The notes under the pieces: model-generated | What the model was told of the DNA's origin: nothing | Seen by the model: the letters and a program-made list of their open reading frames with translations, nothing else | Database searches by the model: none | Shown here: positions 15,133-23,135 of the stretch, in pieces | Layout: each line of letters begins with the position of its first letter | Numbering within the stretch: the stretch's first letter is position 1 | Program-made: the position numbers and the translations under genes | Virus record (IMG/VR): IMGVR_UViG_3300042691_040033 | Location: 1-39,794 of that record | Length of the DNA stretch: 39,794 bases | Origin: a virus | Strand: one strand, 5' to 3'

Positions 15133-16044
15133 ATGTCATATAGATCAAATTTATCTCAGAGCGTTATTATAACGGCAACAAACAGATCGCTTCTTGATAA
15201 GTATTATCAAGAGATATCTAAACTAAAACCGCTTAGTCGCGAAGATGAAGTTCACTTGTTTAATCTTATTATAAAAAATAACGATCAATCAGCAATTGAT
15301 AAAATATGTAAACATAATTTGTTATTTGTTGCAAGAGAGGCTAGGCGATATATTTCTAAATTAGGACACTCAAAAACACTTTATTTGGAAGACCTAATAA
15401 ACGAAGGAAATATAGGTCTCTGCGAAGCGATTAAAAGATTTGATCCGGATAAGGGTCATAAATTTATAACATACGCCGTATGGTGGATAAGGCTTTATAT
15501 CCTTAAATCAATTCAGGATAATGTTAAAAGTATCAGATTGCCAACCAGTGTTAAACATAAAATAGATGATATAAATAAGATTAAAAACAGAATGGAACAT
15601 GAAGGCAGCATTGAAGTTTCCTTGCGCGAAGTATATGAAGAGATGAGAAGAAACGGAGATGTTAAACAATGTGAATCATACGGAAAATTTATTCACAATT
15701 ATAATTTAGGATCTTTCGAAGAAAGTATCAATGATTTTATTGGCGGAGAAAAAGAAGACGGAGAGTTTGCTCAATTGATACCGGATGAAACAACAATGAA
15801 TGGTGAAGAATTATTGATTGATAGGGAGAAAAAAGATTTAATATATAATATGCTTAACGATTTGGACGATAATAGGTTGTTGTATATAAAACACTTTTTT
15901 GGTTTGGACGACTTTGAAAAGTTGACCGTAAAGGAAATAGCGGATAAATATAATAAGCCGGAAGCTAATTTAAGATACGATATTAAAAAAAGTATAAGCA
16001 ATCTAAAAAAGAAAAACAAACTAAAATTAAGAGAGTTTACTTAG
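15133..16044 (+). CDS. Phage-encoded sigma-70 family factor, 303 aa
   Basis: All sigma-70 core regions are visible: region 1.2 (DKYYQEISKLKPLSREDEVH, about 22-41), region 2 (LEDLINEGNIGLCEAIKRFD, then FITYAVWWIRLYILKSIQDN, then IRLPTSVKHK), a region 3 helix set, and a region 4 helix-turn-helix (LTVKEIADKYNKPEANLRYD). The protein directs RNA polymerase core to promoters. In region 2.4 the usual WWIRQ is WWIRL, so the -12 contacting Gln is replaced by Leu, suggesting altered -10 specificity. It is the only plus-strand gene, with its own host-type promoter and terminator, so it is likely made early by host polymerase. It is a plausible functional analogue of T4 gp55 for late transcription, which is inference; it resembles a primary sigma more than gp55. 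Confidence 0.93.
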   Translation: MSYRSNLSQSVIITATNRSLLDKYYQEISKLKPLSREDEVHLFNLIIKNNDQSAIDKICKHNLLFVAREARRYISKLGHSKTLYLEDLINEGNIGLCEAIKRFDPDKGHKFITYAVWWIRLYILKSIQDNVKSIRLPTSVKHKIDDINKIKNRMEHEGSIEVSLREVYEEMRRNGDVKQCESYGKFIHNYNLGSFEESINDFIGGEKEDGEFAQLIPDETTMNGEELLIDREKKDLIYNMLNDLDDNRLLYIKHFFGLDDFEKLTVKEIADKYNKPEANLRYDIKKSISNLKKKNKLKLREFT

Positions 16045-16097: not shown

Positions 16098-16514
16098 TTA
16101 AAAATCTATGATTTCATTTTCCGTATAAGTGCAAAGCAATTCCTCATCCGGTTCTATATTTCTTATTGCAACATAAACATCTTTTTCCAAATCGTGTTTT
16201 ATATTTGGATTCTGAGAATGATTTACGAAATATGATATATTGATATTATTTACTGTTCTTGACAAGAATATTCCATTTTCATCTGAATTACACATTGTAT
16301 TTAGATAATCAAGAACTCTTTTATCCACATTAATTAAATCACTCCACTTTATGTAAGTTTTATCTGGATTAACATCTTCGAATATAACTGTATCTTTTTC
16401 AATTGGTATTATGCTAAACACGCCTACGCCTGAGCATACAGTCGATGGTTTTAGTCTTACATTACAGTTATTTATTAAGCTATTTACTATTTTCTTTTTC
16501 ACTGTTTTTAACAA
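16098..16514 (-). CDS. SET-domain protein (putative lysine methyltransferase), up to 138 aa
   Basis: The protein is a minimal SET domain. It shows the N-terminal SGVGVFSIIPIEKDTVIF block (G-x-G-V-F), the central YFVNHSQNPN (residues about 95-104, matching NHSxNPN that forms the AdoMet pocket), and the C-terminal NIEPDEELLCTYTENE with the catalytic-type Tyr at 130. The family methylates protein lysines; the short size recalls viral SET proteins. The start is uncertain: TTG at 16514 or GTG at 16502 (MKKKIVNS...), with no ATG before the domain. It overlaps the upstream gene by 35 or 23 bases, so it probably depends on reinitiation. The target (host RNA polymerase, ribosomal protein or a phage protein) is unknown. 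Confidence 0.8.
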   Translation of the reverse strand: MLKTVKKKIVNSLINNCNVRLKPSTVCSGVGVFSIIPIEKDTVIFEDVNPDKTYIKWSDLINVDKRVLDYLNTMCNSDENGIFLSRTVNNINISYFVNHSQNPNIKHDLEKDVYVAIRNIEPDEELLCTYTENEIIDF

Positions 16515-17131: not shown

Positions 17132-17599
17132 TTAATGATAGTACCACTCTGGTTTTTCCGAATGTTTCCATGCGGCAAATGATGTTTTAGCACCATTATA
17201 ATAATTTCTATAAGATTGTACAGCGCTATTTACCTTATATTCATCTGGCATAGCCAATGCAAATGGCGTGATACAACCTTTTTCAGGGAGATTGGGTAGA
17301 TTATCTTCACACCAATCAAGAGCCGATTCGCTCTTGTGTTTCTTACCATATCTAGCCGTATATTCCTTACACAAGGCTCTTGTCATATCAATTAGCCAAA
17401 GATAGTTCTCGATACATTCCCTCGCCCAAATCGTACAAGGATGGTTCTTGTGCGTCATTTTGTAAGGGGCTTCATTGCCTGTAACCCAATGCGTAGTGCA
17501 TAAAATTTGATTTTGTTCCAAAATCATTTTTAAAACGTGTTTGTCGCAGTGATACTTTGCGCAAATGTTTGGGTTCTCGTCTAAAACAAAAATGTTCAT
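17132..17599 (-). CDS. Conserved phage protein with HCDKH motif, 155 aa
   Basis: The sequence has the pattern of a small family that I recall from T4-like marine phages and cyanophages: MNIFVLDENPNICAKYHCDKHVLKMILE at the N-terminus (given here by its key block YHCDKHVLKMI), then THKNHPCTIWAR, then KHKSESALDWCE, AMPDEYK, and a C-terminal PEWYYH. Conserved Cys, His and Asp residues suggest metal binding or catalysis, but no activity is known to me. The gene directly follows a host-type promoter whose -7 box is 27 bases upstream, so it heads an early accessory unit. The family resemblance is from memory and not checked. Confidence 0.75.
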   Translation of the reverse strand: MNIFVLDENPNICAKYHCDKHVLKMILEQNQILCTTHWVTGNEAPYKMTHKNHPCTIWARECIENYLWLIDMTRALCKEYTARYGKKHKSESALDWCEDNLPNLPEKGCITPFALAMPDEYKVNSAVQSYRNYYNGAKTSFAAWKHSEKPEWYYH

Positions 17600-18152: not shown

Positions 18153-18166
18153 TTTTATTTTTTAAT

Positions 18167-18173
18167 ATAAATA
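18167..18173 (-). promoter_or_regulatory. Candidate late promoter motif before the 152-aa gene
   Basis: The minus strand reads ATATTTATATTAAAAAATAA, with the TATTTAT core ending 14 bases before the ATG. It shares core and spacing with the motifs at 1212, 11908, 15020 and 29224. Confidence 0.4.
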
Positions 18174-18184
18174 TATCAAATAAA

Positions 18185-18224: not shown

Positions 18225-19436
18225 TTAAGAAGAGCAACCGAAACATTCAAATGGAGAGTCATCCGGTTTTTTAACAGGCTTTGGTTCCGGTTTTCTTGAT
18301 ATATCGATAGCCAAATGTTTTGCTCCAGTTGAAATAGCCCTGGTTCTTACATAATAGCAAAGCGTTTTCAAACCCTTCTTCCAACCATAAAAATGCGAGG
18401 ACGAGATTTTGGACATCGAAGGATTGCTCAAATAGATATTCATGGATTGAGATTGGTCAATAAATGGTGCTCTATCCGCTGCCATATCAATCAATTCTCT
18501 CTGAGATATTTCCCAAATCGTTTTATACTTCTGAATTAGATGTTCAATCCTTTTGACTTTCTTATCGTAGTTCTTATCCTCATCGTCCAAATACTTATTG
18601 AAATTAATGTTCTGAATAGATCCTTCATTCATAATAATTTCATTTTTCAAATCTTCACACCAAATACTAATCTTTTCAAAATCATTGATAAGATATTTGT
18701 TGACAATAAGAATCTCACCGCCGATAACCCTTCTGTTAAATAATGCAGAGTGTGCCGGCTCGGTCATTTCAAATGAACCAGTCGCTCGCGCCGAAGAAGC
18801 TACAGGCATCTGACAGGTAAACAAGCTATTGCAAACACCATGTTTTTTAACTTTGTCCTTCAAATCATTCCAGTCCCATAGTCCTGATAAATCATCTTCT
18901 TTCAATCCCCACATATCGAATTGGAAAATACCATTTGACATGGGAGAACCTTCAAAGAAATCATACGGTTTATATTCACCAGACTCACATAGATTTGCAC
19001 TTTCGGTAATGGATGCAAAATAAATGGTTTCAAATATCTCTTTATTTAATGTTCTTGATTGCGGAGATGTAAAAACATAATCCATAAGATAGAATACGTC
19101 TGCCAATCCTTGAACGCCAATACCAATAGCTCTTTGCTCTAGTCCACCCTTCCTTCCTTTTTCGGTTGAGTAGTTATTGATATCAATAACCTTATTTAAA
19201 GCCCTCACAATCTTCCTCGTTTCGACGTAAAGTTTGGTGTAGTTAAATTTACCGTCTTCGATAAAATTTTTCAACACGAGCGAAGATAGGGTACAAATAG
19301 CCGTGGTTTGTTCATCTGTTGCTTGATAGATTTCACAATTGTGGATTAGAATGTTGTTTGCGAAAAAACAAGATGTTTCTGGTACTTGAATATCGTACAC
19401 ATCGTATTTTTCTTGGATTTTTTTAATTTTAAGCAT
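18225..19436 (-). CDS. nrdA: Split intein C-fragment fused to NrdA C-terminal half, 403 aa
   Basis: Residues 1-33 are an intein C-fragment ending VPETSCFFANNILIHN, with the penultimate His and terminal Asn needed for cleavage, followed by Cys +1. Residues 34-403 are the C-extein: CEIYQATDEQ carries the Glu equivalent to E. coli E441, AICTLSS the partner Cys (C462 type), LCYYVRTRA the radical-transfer tyrosines (Y730/Y731 type), and the tail ends ECFGCSS, the redox Cys pair. The fragment has no ATP cone and no thiyl Cys, so it cannot work alone. It begins two bases after the homing endonuclease stop. After trans-splicing with the product of 20597-22183 a NrdA of about 796 residues is expected, a normal size. 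Confidence 0.93.
   Translation of the reverse strand: MLKIKKIQEKYDVYDIQVPETSCFFANNILIHNCEIYQATDEQTTAICTLSSLVLKNFIEDGKFNYTKLYVETRKIVRALNKVIDINNYSTEKGRKGGLEQRAIGIGVQGLADVFYLMDYVFTSPQSRTLNKEIFETIYFASITESANLCESGEYKPYDFFEGSPMSNGIFQFDMWGLKEDDLSGLWDWNDLKDKVKKHGVCNSLFTCQMPVASSARATGSFEMTEPAHSALFNRRVIGGEILIVNKYLINDFEKISIWCEDLKNEIIMNEGSIQNINFNKYLDDEDKNYDKKVKRIEHLIQKYKTIWEISQRELIDMAADRAPFIDQSQSMNIYLSNPSMSKISSSHFYGWKKGLKTLCYYVRTRAISTGAKHLAIDISRKPEPKPVKKPDDSPFECFGCSS
19338..19436 (-). other. Intein C-fragment (IntC, 33 aa)
   Basis: Encodes MLKIKKIQEKYDVYDIQVPE and the following 13 residues through IHN. VYDIQVPETSCFFANN is intein block F and ILIHN|C is block G with Cys +1. The size is typical of naturally split inteins. 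Confidence 0.93.
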
Positions 19437-19438
19437 AA

Positions 19439-20587
19439 TTAAACGTATTTAAAGATTAAATTTCTATGTTTATTTCTATTGCCTTTACAAACAGCGATTA
19501 TTGCTGATAGGTTTCCATTTATTTTTTTTGCCGCATCAGTAGCTGATTCGTAAATATTTTTAACACCATTATTATCTATACTCATTATCTTAACTTTTCT
19601 ACCTTTTTTAATATTAAATTTATATGTATCATTTTCATATCTAAAGATATTAGCATCCGTATTATTTAATAAGCACTTTCTTCGTATAACCTCTTTATTT
19701 ATACCTGTTTTTTCTGAAGCCTCACTCGCACTTTCAAAACAAATTTCATTTAAGTCATCATATTTTTCTTTAAAAAATATTTTTTTTTCTTTTTTTAATG
19801 TTTTTGGTTTTACATAATCATCTTTTTTGGATTTACTTAAAACTAAATCTTTGTTTTCGTATTTCCAATAATAATTATTATGCTTTCCACCATAATTTAA
19901 TGCTCTATATAATGCACTTGGATTTAAATTATATTTTTTTATAGCATCTAAAGTTTTAAGTTTATCAATAATATTATTTGTTAAAGGGCAAATCATCTCA
20001 ACAAATGGTAAATTATTATGTCTATGTTGTTTTAAAATTTCTTTAAGATTATCACTCATTTTTCTTCCAGAATTCCAATGATATCCATTTTCCAAAATAA
20101 ATTTGTGACTATAAGTGTCTTCTATTTTTTTATTATAATTTGGGTTTCCTGCGCCTCTCCATCTTTCGGAACTTATTTTATCTATTTTTTCTCTGAGTCC
20201 ATCAATATGGATAAATAAGTTTCCGCCAATACCACCGTCTGAAATATTTGTTAATATACCCCCGTCTTTGGATTTTCCATAGTATTTAATTAACTTTGAT
20301 TCTACATCCAAAACTTTTTTTTCATCATTATCTTTATACACTATTAAGAAATTTGGTTTAAAACCAAGTTTTTGTAATTTTTTTATTTTATTGAATTTAT
20401 GCGGATTTTTTGACTCATTTAAGTTTTTTTCAACTTCTTTATAATGAATTAAATGTCTCTTTGATTTACTTTTTGCTAATGAATCTCCCTTTCCGACATA
20501 GAAAGGCTTATATTTAACAGAGCTATACTCATTATCATAATTACCTTTCTTGGTATCATCTAGTAGGATATAGACATAATATCTCAT
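19439..20587 (-). CDS. Free-standing GIY-YIG homing endonuclease, 382 aa
   Basis: The N-terminal nuclease domain has VYILL (5-9) and FYVGKG (29-34) in place of GIY and YIG, catalytic-type Arg44 (KSKRHLIHY) and Glu97 (DVESKLIKYYG), and the typical LTNISDGGIGG at about 112-122. A NUMOD3-like block follows (GAGNPNYNKK and NSGRKMSDNLKE), then NUMOD1-like helix-turn-helix units (TLDAIKKYNLNPSALYRAL; ESASEASEKTGINKEVIRR; ESATDAAKKINGNLSAI) for DNA binding. The gene sits between the two halves of the split intein, 9 bases after one and 2 bases before the other, so it is co-transcribed. It is visibly more A/T- and Lys-rich than flanking nrdA, which suggests separate ancestry. It likely cleaves intein-free nrdA alleles at the insertion site. 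Confidence 0.92.
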   Translation of the reverse strand: MRYYVYILLDDTKKGNYDNEYSSVKYKPFYVGKGDSLAKSKSKRHLIHYKEVEKNLNESKNPHKFNKIKKLQKLGFKPNFLIVYKDNDEKKVLDVESKLIKYYGKSKDGGILTNISDGGIGGNLFIHIDGLREKIDKISSERWRGAGNPNYNKKIEDTYSHKFILENGYHWNSGRKMSDNLKEILKQHRHNNLPFVEMICPLTNNIIDKLKTLDAIKKYNLNPSALYRALNYGGKHNNYYWKYENKDLVLSKSKKDDYVKPKTLKKEKKIFFKEKYDDLNEICFESASEASEKTGINKEVIRRKCLLNNTDANIFRYENDTYKFNIKKGRKVKIMSIDNNGVKNIYESATDAAKKINGNLSAIIAVCKGNRNKHRNLIFKYV

Positions 20588-20596
20588 AAGTTAAAT

Positions 20597-22183
20597 TTAT
20601 TTAGTTATTTCTAAGATATCGTCTTCTTTAAGCTCATCTGCTCTAACATAGCCCCTATTTTTAGTATAAACTAAATGATCAGGTGTACATTTTAATGTTA
20701 AACCTGTTTCTTCATCAATTATTTCCATCACCTCTGAGTTTTTTCTAGTTAAACTACCAGCAATAATTAAAGAAAATTTATTGTCTTTTGTTAAAACCAT
20801 CAATCTTTCGGATTGATTTATTAAATCAACAACTTCTTTAATTTTTAGTGTTTGAACATCGCCATTCTCTCTTTTAATTACTAAATTAGTATCTCCAACA
20901 ACACAACAAAGATTGCTTTGATGAATAATACCAATATTTTGATGGTTTGTCTTTTTATTTGCACTATCTTTAGCAGAAAGATATGGAACTCCCGTTTCTA
21001 TTTGTGACTCAATAATTTTGGACCAAACATCTTGAGCTCTTACTTTCTTGCCGATTCCAAGCTCAACGGCTTTATTATAGTTGTTTTCATACTCTTCGCC
21101 ATAGCATTCTTGAAGTGGCTTAATACCTGATTTTAGAATTTCATTTGGACAAAAGAGATACCAATCACCATCGTTTTCAACAGCTCTCATAAAGTTATCC
21201 GGAATCCATAACGCAGTAAATAAGTCTCTAGCCCTCAATTCCTCAGCGCCAGTATTCTTTTTGATGTCCAATAAATCAAAAACATCTCTGTGCCACGGTT
21301 CCAGATAAATTGCCGCTGATCCTGGTCTCCGCCCTTGTTGATTAAAGAATCTCAATGATTCGTTAACGATTTTAAGGTATTTAAGTAACCCTCCTGAGTA
21401 CCCACCGGTTGTTGAAATTCTGCTTTCCTTGCTTCGAATATTACTCATACAAAGACCAATACCTGCGGCATCGGCTGAGTATGTTGAAATATCATTCAAA
21501 GACGCGAGCAAACCCTCTCTGGAGTCCCCGTTATTATAATGGAGAACACAAGAAGCCAGTTGAGGCTTCTTTGTTCCCGAATTAATCATAATTGGTGTTG
21601 CCGGAGATATTAACTGACTGGAAAGCGAATTGTAATAACGAATGGCATCATCTACGGTATTTGTAACCCAAACAGCAACACGCATATACATGTGCTGCGG
21701 ACGTTCAACGGTAACACCCTCAGGGGTTTTTAACAAATACATTTCTCTGAGTGATCGCCAAGCAAAGAAATCAAAGGTAAAATCATTTTCATGATTTATT
21801 GCTTCATCGATTTTTTCCTTACCATATTCATCCAATTTTTGAATAAATAAATCATTGATAATTCCTTCATTGTACAATGATTTCATTGTTTCATAGAAAC
21901 TTGGATTCGTTTCTTTATGGTAAGAAGTGATAGCAACATATGCCGCCATACGGGAATAGTCGTGATGACTTCCAGTATATGATGCAGCAATATCAGAAAC
22001 TTGTTTATCTAACTCTTTGGTCGTGATCTCACCTTCTGTAGGTAATGATGTAATAACTTTGATGAATATTTCATCGGGGTTAACACTAAGACCCTTAGCC
22101 GCTCTTTTGATTCGAGCATGGATTTTTTGAGGATTGAAAGCAACAGCCTCTCCATCTCTCTTTCTTATTCGTAAGGACATCAT
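20597..22183 (-). CDS. nrdA: NrdA N-terminal half fused to split intein N-fragment, 528 aa
   Basis: Residues 1-426 are the N-extein of class Ia ribonucleotide reductase large subunit: an ATP cone (RIRKRDGEAVAFNPQKIHARIK), the first redox Cys in LASCVLHYNNGDS, and the finger-loop end IIHQSNLC. Cys426 is the thiyl-radical residue (E. coli C439). Residues 427-528 are an intein N-fragment starting CVVGDTN, with block B TPDHLVYT and ending DDILEITK. NrdA reduces ribonucleotides to deoxyribonucleotides together with NrdB. Start is at ATGATG, one base after the nrdB stop. The product is inactive until spliced to the C-half. The remainder of the intein and enzyme lies at 18225-19436. Confidence 0.94.
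   Translation of the reverse strand: MMSLRIRKRDGEAVAFNPQKIHARIKRAAKGLSVNPDEIFIKVITSLPTEGEITTKELDKQVSDIAASYTGSHHDYSRMAAYVAITSYHKETNPSFYETMKSLYNEGIINDLFIQKLDEYGKEKIDEAINHENDFTFDFFAWRSLREMYLLKTPEGVTVERPQHMYMRVAVWVTNTVDDAIRYYNSLSSQLISPATPIMINSGTKKPQLASCVLHYNNGDSREGLLASLNDISTYSADAAGIGLCMSNIRSKESRISTTGGYSGGLLKYLKIVNESLRFFNQQGRRPGSAAIYLEPWHRDVFDLLDIKKNTGAEELRARDLFTALWIPDNFMRAVENDGDWYLFCPNEILKSGIKPLQECYGEEYENNYNKAVELGIGKKVRAQDVWSKIIESQIETGVPYLSAKDSANKKTNHQNIGIIHQSNLCCVVGDTNLVIKRENGDVQTLKIKEVVDLINQSERLMVLTKDNKFSLIIAGSLTRKNSEVMEIIDEETGLTLKCTPDHLVYTKNRGYVRADELKEDDILEITK
20600..20905 (-). other. Intein N-fragment (IntN, 102 aa)
   Basis: Begins with Cys1 (CVVGDTNLVIK, block A) directly after SNLC and contains block B TPDHLVYT with the T-x-x-H motif. 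It stops after DILEITK with a normal stop codon, without endonuclease domain or C-terminal splicing blocks, which are supplied by the separate IntC gene. Confidence 0.93.
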
Positions 22184-22184
22184 A

Positions 22185-23135
22185 TTAAAAATCTTCGTTT
22201 AGTTTTAAAGGTTCTTTTTGACTCATTTTTGTATATTCGATAGTTCTTGATTCAAAGAAATTGTTCTTAGTTTCAACTGCAATTTGTTCCATAAACTTAA
22301 ATGGTTGATCAACATTGAAAACTTTGGAACATCCCATTTTAACTAACAAACCGTCGACCACAAACTCTAAATACTGCTTCATTAAATTTGAATTCATTCC
22401 AATCATAGAAACCGGCAAAGATTCTGTAATAAATTCTTTTTCGATTTCAAGCGCGGATAACAGAATTTCTTTGATTCTTGCTTCACTTGGTTTGTTTTCC
22501 AAATGATTATTCAATAGATGAATTGCAAAATCACAGTGAAGATTTTCATCTTTAAATATAAATCCATTGGCTAAACAAAGACCCGGCATCAATCCTCTTG
22601 ATTTTAACCAGAAAATAGAACAGAAAGAACCCGAAAAGAAAATACCTTCAACTGCCGCAAATGCAACTAGGCGTTCCTGAAACGAGGCTTTTTCAATCCA
22701 ATCCAAAGCCCATTTGGCTTTTTTCTGTACAGCGGGAAGTCTATCCAATGCGTGAAAACATTCATTCTTTTCTTCAGGATTGGAAATGTATGTATCAATC
22801 AAAAGAGAATACATCAAGGAATGGATGTTTTCCATTGCCAATTGGAATCCATAAAAGAATTTCGCTTCAGGATATTGAACTTCACGATAGAAGTTTTCAG
22901 CAAGATTTTCATTCACAATGCCATCTGAAGCGGCAAAAAATGATAAAACATTTTTAATGAAGTACCTCTCATTATCCGTCAAATTAACCCAGTCTTTCCA
23001 ATCTTGGCTTAAATCCACCTCTTCAACAGTCCAAAAGGCTCTTTGGTGTTGATCATAAAAACTCCAGATATCGTGATACTGGATGGGGAATAGGACAAAC
23101 CTATTCGGATTTTCTGTTAAAATACGTTCGTTCAT
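22185..23135 (-). CDS. nrdB: Ribonucleotide reductase small subunit, class Ia, 316 aa
   Basis: This is the di-iron tyrosyl-radical subunit. All ligands are present: Asp71 ([13 protein letters not shown]), Glu102 and His105 ([10 protein letters not shown]), Glu163 ([10 protein letters not shown]), Glu197 and His200 (KDENLHCDF). Tyr109 occupies the radical position. The segment [14 protein letters not shown] is of the eukaryote-like type. The C-terminus ends LNEDF, the kind of tail that docks to NrdA. The length is slightly shorter than cellular homologues. It lies one base upstream of the nrdA N-half and is probably translated together with it, supplying dNTPs for phage replication. Confidence 0.95.

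What the first reader, a model, noticed from the sequence alone, without database searches (positions are those of the whole stretch)
18225..22183. Fractured nrdA: split intein with a free-standing GIY-YIG endonuclease in the break
Ribonucleotide reductase large subunit is encoded as two separate genes. The first ends with a complete intein N-fragment (Cys1, block B TPDHLVYT) and a stop codon; the second begins with an intein C-fragment (block F, IHN|C). A homing endonuclease gene sits between them with gaps of 9 and 2 bases. This arrangement (fractured genes with split inteins) is known from environmental phage sequence, but each natural example is rare. The endonuclease here is GIY-YIG with NUMOD DNA-binding units. 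The whole is consistent with an inteinic gene broken by an invading endonuclease or with collaborative homing.
Basis: partly seen in the sequence, partly recalled or inferred. Interest (0 to 1): 0.85.

Follow-up and report, generated by a model that had tools for sequence, protein, structure and literature searches.

The report
Split reductase gene rejoined by intein
In an uncultured phage, the gene for an enzyme that makes DNA building blocks is cut in two by a mobile DNA-cutting gene, and the two protein halves carry matching self-splicing ends that should join them again; about two dozen relatives show that this cassette moves between phages and that the gene stays split even after the cutting gene has decayed.

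Summary
nrdA is encoded as two minus-strand genes, NrdA-N+IntN (20597-22183) and IntC+NrdA-C (18225-19436), with a GIY-YIG/NUMOD endonuclease gene between them (19439-20587; gaps 9 and 2 bases). All class 1 intein splicing residues are present, and the joined intein resembles the solved split intein NrdJ-1 (E 3e-22). It sits directly behind the catalytic cysteine of NrdA; the splice product would be 796 aa.

It is a new member of a known kind: 'fractured genes' (Dassa 2009), for which a GIY-YIG example in nrdHF (AceL) is published.

About 25 IMG/VR contigs carry this split intein at this site; 76 close relatives have an uninterrupted nrdA. The +1 residue is Cys in every inteined allele and in none of the 76 free ones. 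Intein presence is patchy on the NrdA tree; one pair of relatives shows intein transfer and another a co-conversion tract, so the cassette homes. The endonuclease has been deleted or lost repeatedly while the gene stayed split: the split outlives the endonuclease. Splicing and DNA cutting themselves are inferred, not shown, and no recent transfer can be claimed for the window's own copy.

The parts
20906..22183 (-). NrdA N-extein (residues 1-426; ATP cone, all-alpha domain, first part of barrel), ends ...SNLC at the catalytic cysteine
   Evidence: alignment to solved class I NrdA chains
20600..20905 (-). IntN, 102 aa: Cys1 (CVVGDT), block B CTPDHLVYT
   Evidence: homologous to NrdJ-1 split intein
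20588..20599 (-). stop codon of nrdA-N and 9-base gap with a second in-frame TAA
19439..20587 (-). free-standing homing endonuclease gene, 382 aa: GIY-YIG domain (about residues 3-119) and NUMOD-type DNA-binding unit near the C end (336-380)
19437..19438 (-). 2-base gap between endonuclease stop and IntC start
19338..19436 (-). IntC, 33 aa: block F VYDIQVPETSCFFANN, block G ILIHN
18225..19337 (-). NrdA C-extein, 370 aa, begins with Cys+1 (CEIYQ), ends ECFGCSS
22185..23135 (-). nrdB, small subunit of the same reductase, immediately upstream
   Evidence: Ribonuc_red_sm, E 2.3e-105

Best explanation
This is a fractured nrdA gene. Two separate polypeptides, NrdA-N-IntN and IntC-NrdA-C, associate through the intein halves, which splice in trans (class 1: Cys1, block B His, block G His-Asn, Cys+1) to give a continuous 796-residue NrdA with SNLC-CEI at the radical site. 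Because the intein lies directly behind the catalytic cysteine, neither half should be active until splicing occurs. The gene in the break encodes a GIY-YIG endonuclease that most likely cuts intein-free nrdA alleles near this site in mixed infection; repair from the inteined copy transfers IntN + endonuclease + IntC with flanking extein DNA, including the +1 Cys codon. The endonuclease is dispensable for the host protein: it decays, and the split intein stays. Shown by sequence: the anatomy, conservation of splicing and catalytic residues, patchy distribution, one intein transfer and one co-conversion tract among relatives, and endonuclease loss with retention of the split. Inferred: that splicing occurs, that the nuclease cuts, and where.
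For: Complete intein halves at the break homologous to the solved split intein NrdJ-1, E 3e-22. Break directly behind the catalytic Cys by alignment to solved reductases. +1 residue Cys in all inteined alleles and in 0 of 76 intein-free relatives, which have Asn, Ser or Ala; 7 of 7 independent pairs on the NrdA tree, p 0.016. IntN dN/dS 0.03-0.10 among L089, L142, L143. GIY-YIG catalytic positions Y6, Y30, G32, R44, H48, E96, N114 invariant in 11 homologues. Intein state changes at least 8 times on the NrdA tree, and the window groups with intein-free L005/L006. L089 and L143: intein 96% but extein 82% identical, extein data reject them as a clade, AU p 0.0019. L089 against L140: N-extein DNA 62-83% identical far from the site, 87-100% in the 540 bases next to it, about 100% inside the insert. 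Endonuclease deleted across a 12-bp repeat in L143/L004/L091/L144 and absent in L146 and L153, split intein intact in all.
Against: No splicing or cleavage data. IntN profile score slightly below the curated cut-offs. For the window itself synonymous sites are saturated in insert and exteins, so no recent transfer can be shown, and no co-conversion gradient is seen next to its insertion. GIY-YIG profile score 0.2 bits under cut-off.
Confidence: 0.87

Rival explanations
1. Gene in pieces without splicing: the two halves assemble non-covalently into an active reductase, as reported for phage Aeh1 where mobE splits nrdA, and the intein pieces are inert remains.
For: Precedent for functional nrdA in pieces (PMC2988022).
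Against: Every splicing residue is kept in window and relatives, IntN shows strong purifying selection among L089/L142/L143, and Cys+1 is tied perfectly to the intein. The break lies beside the catalytic cysteine, where unremoved 102- and 33-residue tails should block the site (inference).
Confidence: 0.06
2. The locus is not a split protein gene: it is an RNA-level element (group I intron) or a sequencing or assembly error of a continuous intein with an embedded endonuclease.
For: IntN and endonuclease happen to be in the same reading frame in the window, separated by stop codons.
Against: No Rfam match in the window; two stop codons, not one; many independent contigs with the same order but other gap lengths and frames.
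Confidence: 0.02
3. Split first, endonuclease later: an intein was already split (or split by simple deletion or mutation), and endonucleases of several families then settled in the ready-made gap, where they do no harm.
For: Endonuclease-less split alleles with gaps of -4 to 42 bases exist (L159, L161, L165, L174, L146, L153), and GIY-YIG, HNH and other nucleases occupy the gap at the same site; direction of cis/split change unresolved.
Against: Several endonuclease-less alleles nest among endonuclease-bearing ones (L153 with L002/L095; L174/L175 with L176), and remnants of the same genes are seen, which points to loss in those cases. This rival concerns the origin of the split, not its present function.
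Confidence: 0.3
4. The endonuclease is an unrelated passenger that targets another locus and plays no part in the spread of the intein.
For: Free-standing phage endonucleases often cut hundreds of bases away from their own gene (PMC2988022).
Against: Its relatives were found only in this break, and insert and flank move together in L089/L140.
Confidence: 0.08

Closest known systems
Fractured genes with split inteins and free-standing endonucleases (Dassa et al. 2009, Nucleic Acids Res 37:2560; not held here, known through PMC3653736 and memory)
   Same: Conserved DNA-metabolism gene broken in two by a split intein with an endonuclease gene between; nrdA is a known host gene (7 nrdA cases in ocean data according to PMC3653736)
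   Different: Endonuclease here is GIY-YIG with NUMOD; the Vsr-like family highlighted in that paper (from memory) is not the one found in this break
AceL NrdHF split intein (PMC7891396)
   Same: Fractured phage-like reductase gene with a GIY-YIG gene in the break; IntN 98 aa there, 102 aa here
   Different: AceL is in nrdHF (beta subunit), class 3 without a Cys1 nucleophile; here nrdA (alpha subunit), class 1
NrdJ-1 split intein (PDB 8ubs)
   Same: Best solved relative of the joined halves, E 3e-22; shares TPDHxVYTKNRGYVRADEL and the block F/G region
   Different: Lies in class II reductase NrdJ
Klebsiella phage KP13-7 nrdA (OP617745)
   Same: Same site SNLC|C, split intein, GIY-YIG gene in the break
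   Different: Another GIY-YIG subtype (237 aa), IntN 43% identical; nrdA further broken by a second intein and another nuclease gene
Yersinia phage TG1 nrdA (KP202158)
   Same: nrdA split by an intein with a homing endonuclease gene between
   Different: HNH endonuclease; intein one codon upstream (SNL|C), so that the catalytic Cys itself is +1
Aeh1 nrdA split by mobE
   Same: nrdA broken by a homing endonuclease gene (PMC2988022)
   Different: Halves function as separate polypeptides; no intein

Membership tests
Fractured gene (split intein + endonuclease gene) | One conserved protein encoded by two genes, broken within an intein | tested here: met
   NrdA profile continues across the two genes; intein halves at the break; uninterrupted homologues in 76 contigs
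Fractured gene (split intein + endonuclease gene) | Endonuclease gene with its own start codon in the break | tested here: met
   19439-20587, GIY-YIG/NUMOD
Split intein, class 1 | Cys1, block B TxxH, block G HN, nucleophile at +1 | tested here: met
Split intein, class 1 | Protein trans-splicing | not testable with these tools
   needs co-expression; homology to NrdJ-1 supports it
GIY-YIG homing endonuclease | GIY-YIG motifs with catalytic Arg and Glu, modular DNA-binding C part | tested here: met
   invariant in 11 homologues; Pfam; weak fold matches to I-HmuI and a GIY-YIG nuclease
GIY-YIG homing endonuclease | Mobility of its gene into empty alleles | tested here: met
   in relatives, not for the window itself: L089/L143 and L089/L140
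GIY-YIG homing endonuclease | Site-specific DNA cleavage | not testable with these tools
   needs protein
Collaborative homing | Endonuclease gene independent of the element that it mobilises | tested here: inconclusive
   no independent copy of this endonuclease found, but the searches were not exhaustive
Gene in pieces (Aeh1 type) | No splicing element at the break | tested here: not met
   complete intein halves at the break

The most novel reading that the evidence does not exclude
At this nrdA site the whole life cycle of a fractured gene is visible: the cassette homes with its flanks, the endonuclease is repeatedly deleted or replaced by others (GIY-YIG of two kinds, HNH, others), yet the gene is not seen to re-fuse in the lineages that lost it. 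Split inteins without an endonuclease would then be relics of endonuclease-bearing ones, and splitting would act as a ratchet.
Probability: 0.5. Interest if true: 0.65.

Novelty: new member of a known kind. Interest (0 to 1): 0.5.

Why it matters
Natural split inteins are prized tools, but how they arise and why they stay split is open. This family offers, at one site in one gene, empty alleles, full cassettes, endonuclease remnants, endonuclease-less split alleles and, in a sister group, continuous mini-inteins. That makes the question testable by phylogeny and by bench splicing. The NrdJ-1-like inteins, which come in many diverged natural variants, are also candidates for fast, mutually independent splicing pairs.

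Tried and rejected
Recent transfer into the window phage, from low dS: apparent dS of the insert (about 0.8-1.1 against L089 and L103) was below that of the exteins, but a codon-usage control showed both saturated and the difference due to AT-rich composition; claim dropped. Co-conversion in the window against L005 or L089: no identity gradient near the site. Conflict between IntN and endonuclease trees for L002/L095 (a swap of endonucleases): only borderline (AU p 0.024 for protein, 0.078 for DNA, and the endonuclease tree does not resolve L002 against the window group). Group I intron: no Rfam hit. Endonuclease homologues in bacterial or archaeal genomes: none. Structure model from two sequences was poor; from eleven it was better but of low pTM, with only weak fold matches. 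Direction cis to split: unresolved. The viral scan with the single endonuclease as query found nothing; the scan with its alignment worked. Dassa 2009 was not held in the library, so its exact list of endonuclease types could not be checked.

Full report
1. Observation. On the minus strand of the window lie, in order, a DnaB-like helicase gene, nrdB, nrdA-N (20597-22183), an endonuclease gene (19439-20587) and nrdA-C (18225-19436). The NrdA barrel domain is cut at profile position 213 of 523 and continues in the second gene. nrdA-N ends with 102 residues that begin CVVGDT and hold CTPDHLVYT; nrdA-C begins with 33 residues ending FFANNILIHN, followed by Cys. IntN stops at TAA, a second TAA follows in frame, then comes the ATG of the endonuclease. 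The spliced protein would have 426 + 370 = 796 residues. The window is a 39.8-kb virus record that may be a fragment; baseplate similarity points weakly to phages such as the Flavobacterium phages 'immuto' (26% identity).

2. Site. Alignment to solved class I reductases places the break directly behind the conserved SNLC cysteine, which is the thiyl-radical cysteine (E. coli Cys439, human Cys429; numbering from general knowledge). 76 close relatives have an uninterrupted nrdA with exactly one residue (Asn 65, Ser 6, Ala 5) where every inteined allele has the +1 Cys. On the NrdA tree 7 of 7 independent pairs agree (p 0.016). The intein therefore brings, or demands, its nucleophile, and that cysteine stays beside the radical cysteine in the spliced enzyme. 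In Yersinia phage TG1, Aeromonas phage PhAER-4 and Dickeya phage LIMEstone1 the inteins lie one codon upstream (SNL|C) and use the catalytic cysteine itself as +1.

3. Intein. The joined halves match the structurally solved split intein NrdJ-1 (E 3e-22) and, more weakly, gp41-1 (6e-4). Splicing residues are conserved in relatives. dN/dS of IntN is 0.03-0.10 among L089, L142 and L143. By inference the intein is under selection to work.

4. Endonuclease. Pfam gives LEM-3-like GIY-YIG (0.2 bits under its cut-off) and an I-HmuI NUMOD-like unit. The GIY and YIG tyrosines and the Arg, His, Glu and Asn at the expected places are invariant in 11 homologues (assignment to the I-TevI catalytic set is from general knowledge). 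A model from the 11 sequences (pLDDT 71, pTM 0.28) has I-HmuI and a GIY-YIG nuclease as its best, weak PDB matches. The gene is more AT-rich (22-26% GC) than most of nrdA (35-42%). No full-length relative was found in named phages (only GIY-YIG domain matches) or in bacterial and archaeal genomes. In IMG/VR the 18 contigs found with an endonuclease of at least 42% identity all have it in this break; two more, 36-37% identical over the GIY-YIG domain only, were not followed up.

5. Relatives. About 25 contigs, the window included, with window-like NrdA carry this intein: 12 with the full endonuclease, plus L194 and L199 with more distant NrdA; some are cut by contig ends; four contigs share one allele with a 120-aa remnant, explained by a deletion between two copies of AATTATTTATGA; L155 has a 94-aa remnant; L146 and L153 have none but are still split, with stop and new ATG 30 and 14 bases apart. 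In other phages the same SNLC|C site holds split inteins with HNH-type genes (PHROG 655, the family of the TG1 gene), with another GIY-YIG subtype (KP13-7, L157), with no endonuclease (L159, L161, L165, L174), and continuous mini-inteins of 144-147 aa (L110-L113, L178).

6. Mobility. Intein state must change at least 8 times on the NrdA tree, and the window groups with intein-free L005/L006 at full support. L089 and L143 have 96% identical inteins in 82% identical exteins, and the extein data reject them as a clade (AU p 0.0019). L089 and L140 have 62-83% identity per 60-base block in the distal 720 bases of the N-extein, 87-100% in the 540 bases next to the insertion and about 100% inside the insert: a co-conversion tract, the footprint of homing. 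For the window itself synonymous sites are saturated in both insert and exteins, so no recent transfer can be claimed.

7. Loss of the endonuclease. On the intein tree the presence of an endonuclease changes about 11 times among split alleles, and endonuclease-less alleles nest among bearing ones (L153 with L002/L095; L174/L175 with L176; L159 with L160), while cis/split changes only twice. With the deletion remnants this shows loss of the endonuclease without re-fusion of the halves in several lineages. Not all branches are strongly supported, the sample is what pattern-based scans returned, and the direction of the cis/split change is open.

8. Verdict. A real, conserved and very probably functional trans-splicing system, filed as a new member of the fractured-gene kind. 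Known precedents are Dassa 2009 (through PMC3653736) and AceL NrdHF with a GIY-YIG gene in the break (PMC7891396). What is added is an allele series at one site that speaks to how split inteins spread and persist.

Noticed in passing
L002, L089, L095, L099, L103, L109, L143, L147 just upstream of the endonuclease; window 18166-18175 (-): A start-proximal element TATATTTATA: 58 of 76 occurrences in these contigs lie within 25 nt upstream of an ATG on the same strand, 39 of them exactly 3 nt away, against 3 of 76 for its reverse complement (many are the same gene in related contigs). It precedes the endonuclease in the relatives but not in the window; it may be a phage promoter or translation element carried with the endonuclease.
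   Followed up: partly
window 15133-16044 (+): A protein with sigma-70 region 2 (E 3.2e-14), the longest plus-strand ORF in a window whose other long ORFs are on the minus strand; a candidate to read the element above.
   Followed up: no
L146 6361-9595, L148 7511-10720, L153 6330-8042: A second intein in the same nrdA at MPVA|C...SHN|S: split with a ~500-aa gene in the break in L146 and L148, continuous in L153. The gene matches only a PHROG of unknown function; by eye it resembles Vsr-like nucleases.
   Followed up: partly
L084 (Klebsiella phage KP13-7) 3998-9528: nrdA in several pieces in a cultured jumbo phage: an ORF with an HNH look between the first two pieces, a split intein with a GIY-YIG gene at SNLC|C, and a second split intein with an endonuclease-VII-like gene.
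   Followed up: partly
L194 6356-7105 and 7098-7484: A GIY-YIG/NUMOD endonuclease gene whose first codons (MANGKYININYP) nearly repeat the start of the next gene (MANGRYININYP), as if it had been inserted at that gene's 5' end and had copied its start.
   Followed up: no
window 16098-16514 (-) and 17132-17599 (-): A SET-domain protein (E 6.9e-11) and a pyrimidine dimer DNA glycosylase (E 6.9e-9) close to nrdA.
   Followed up: no
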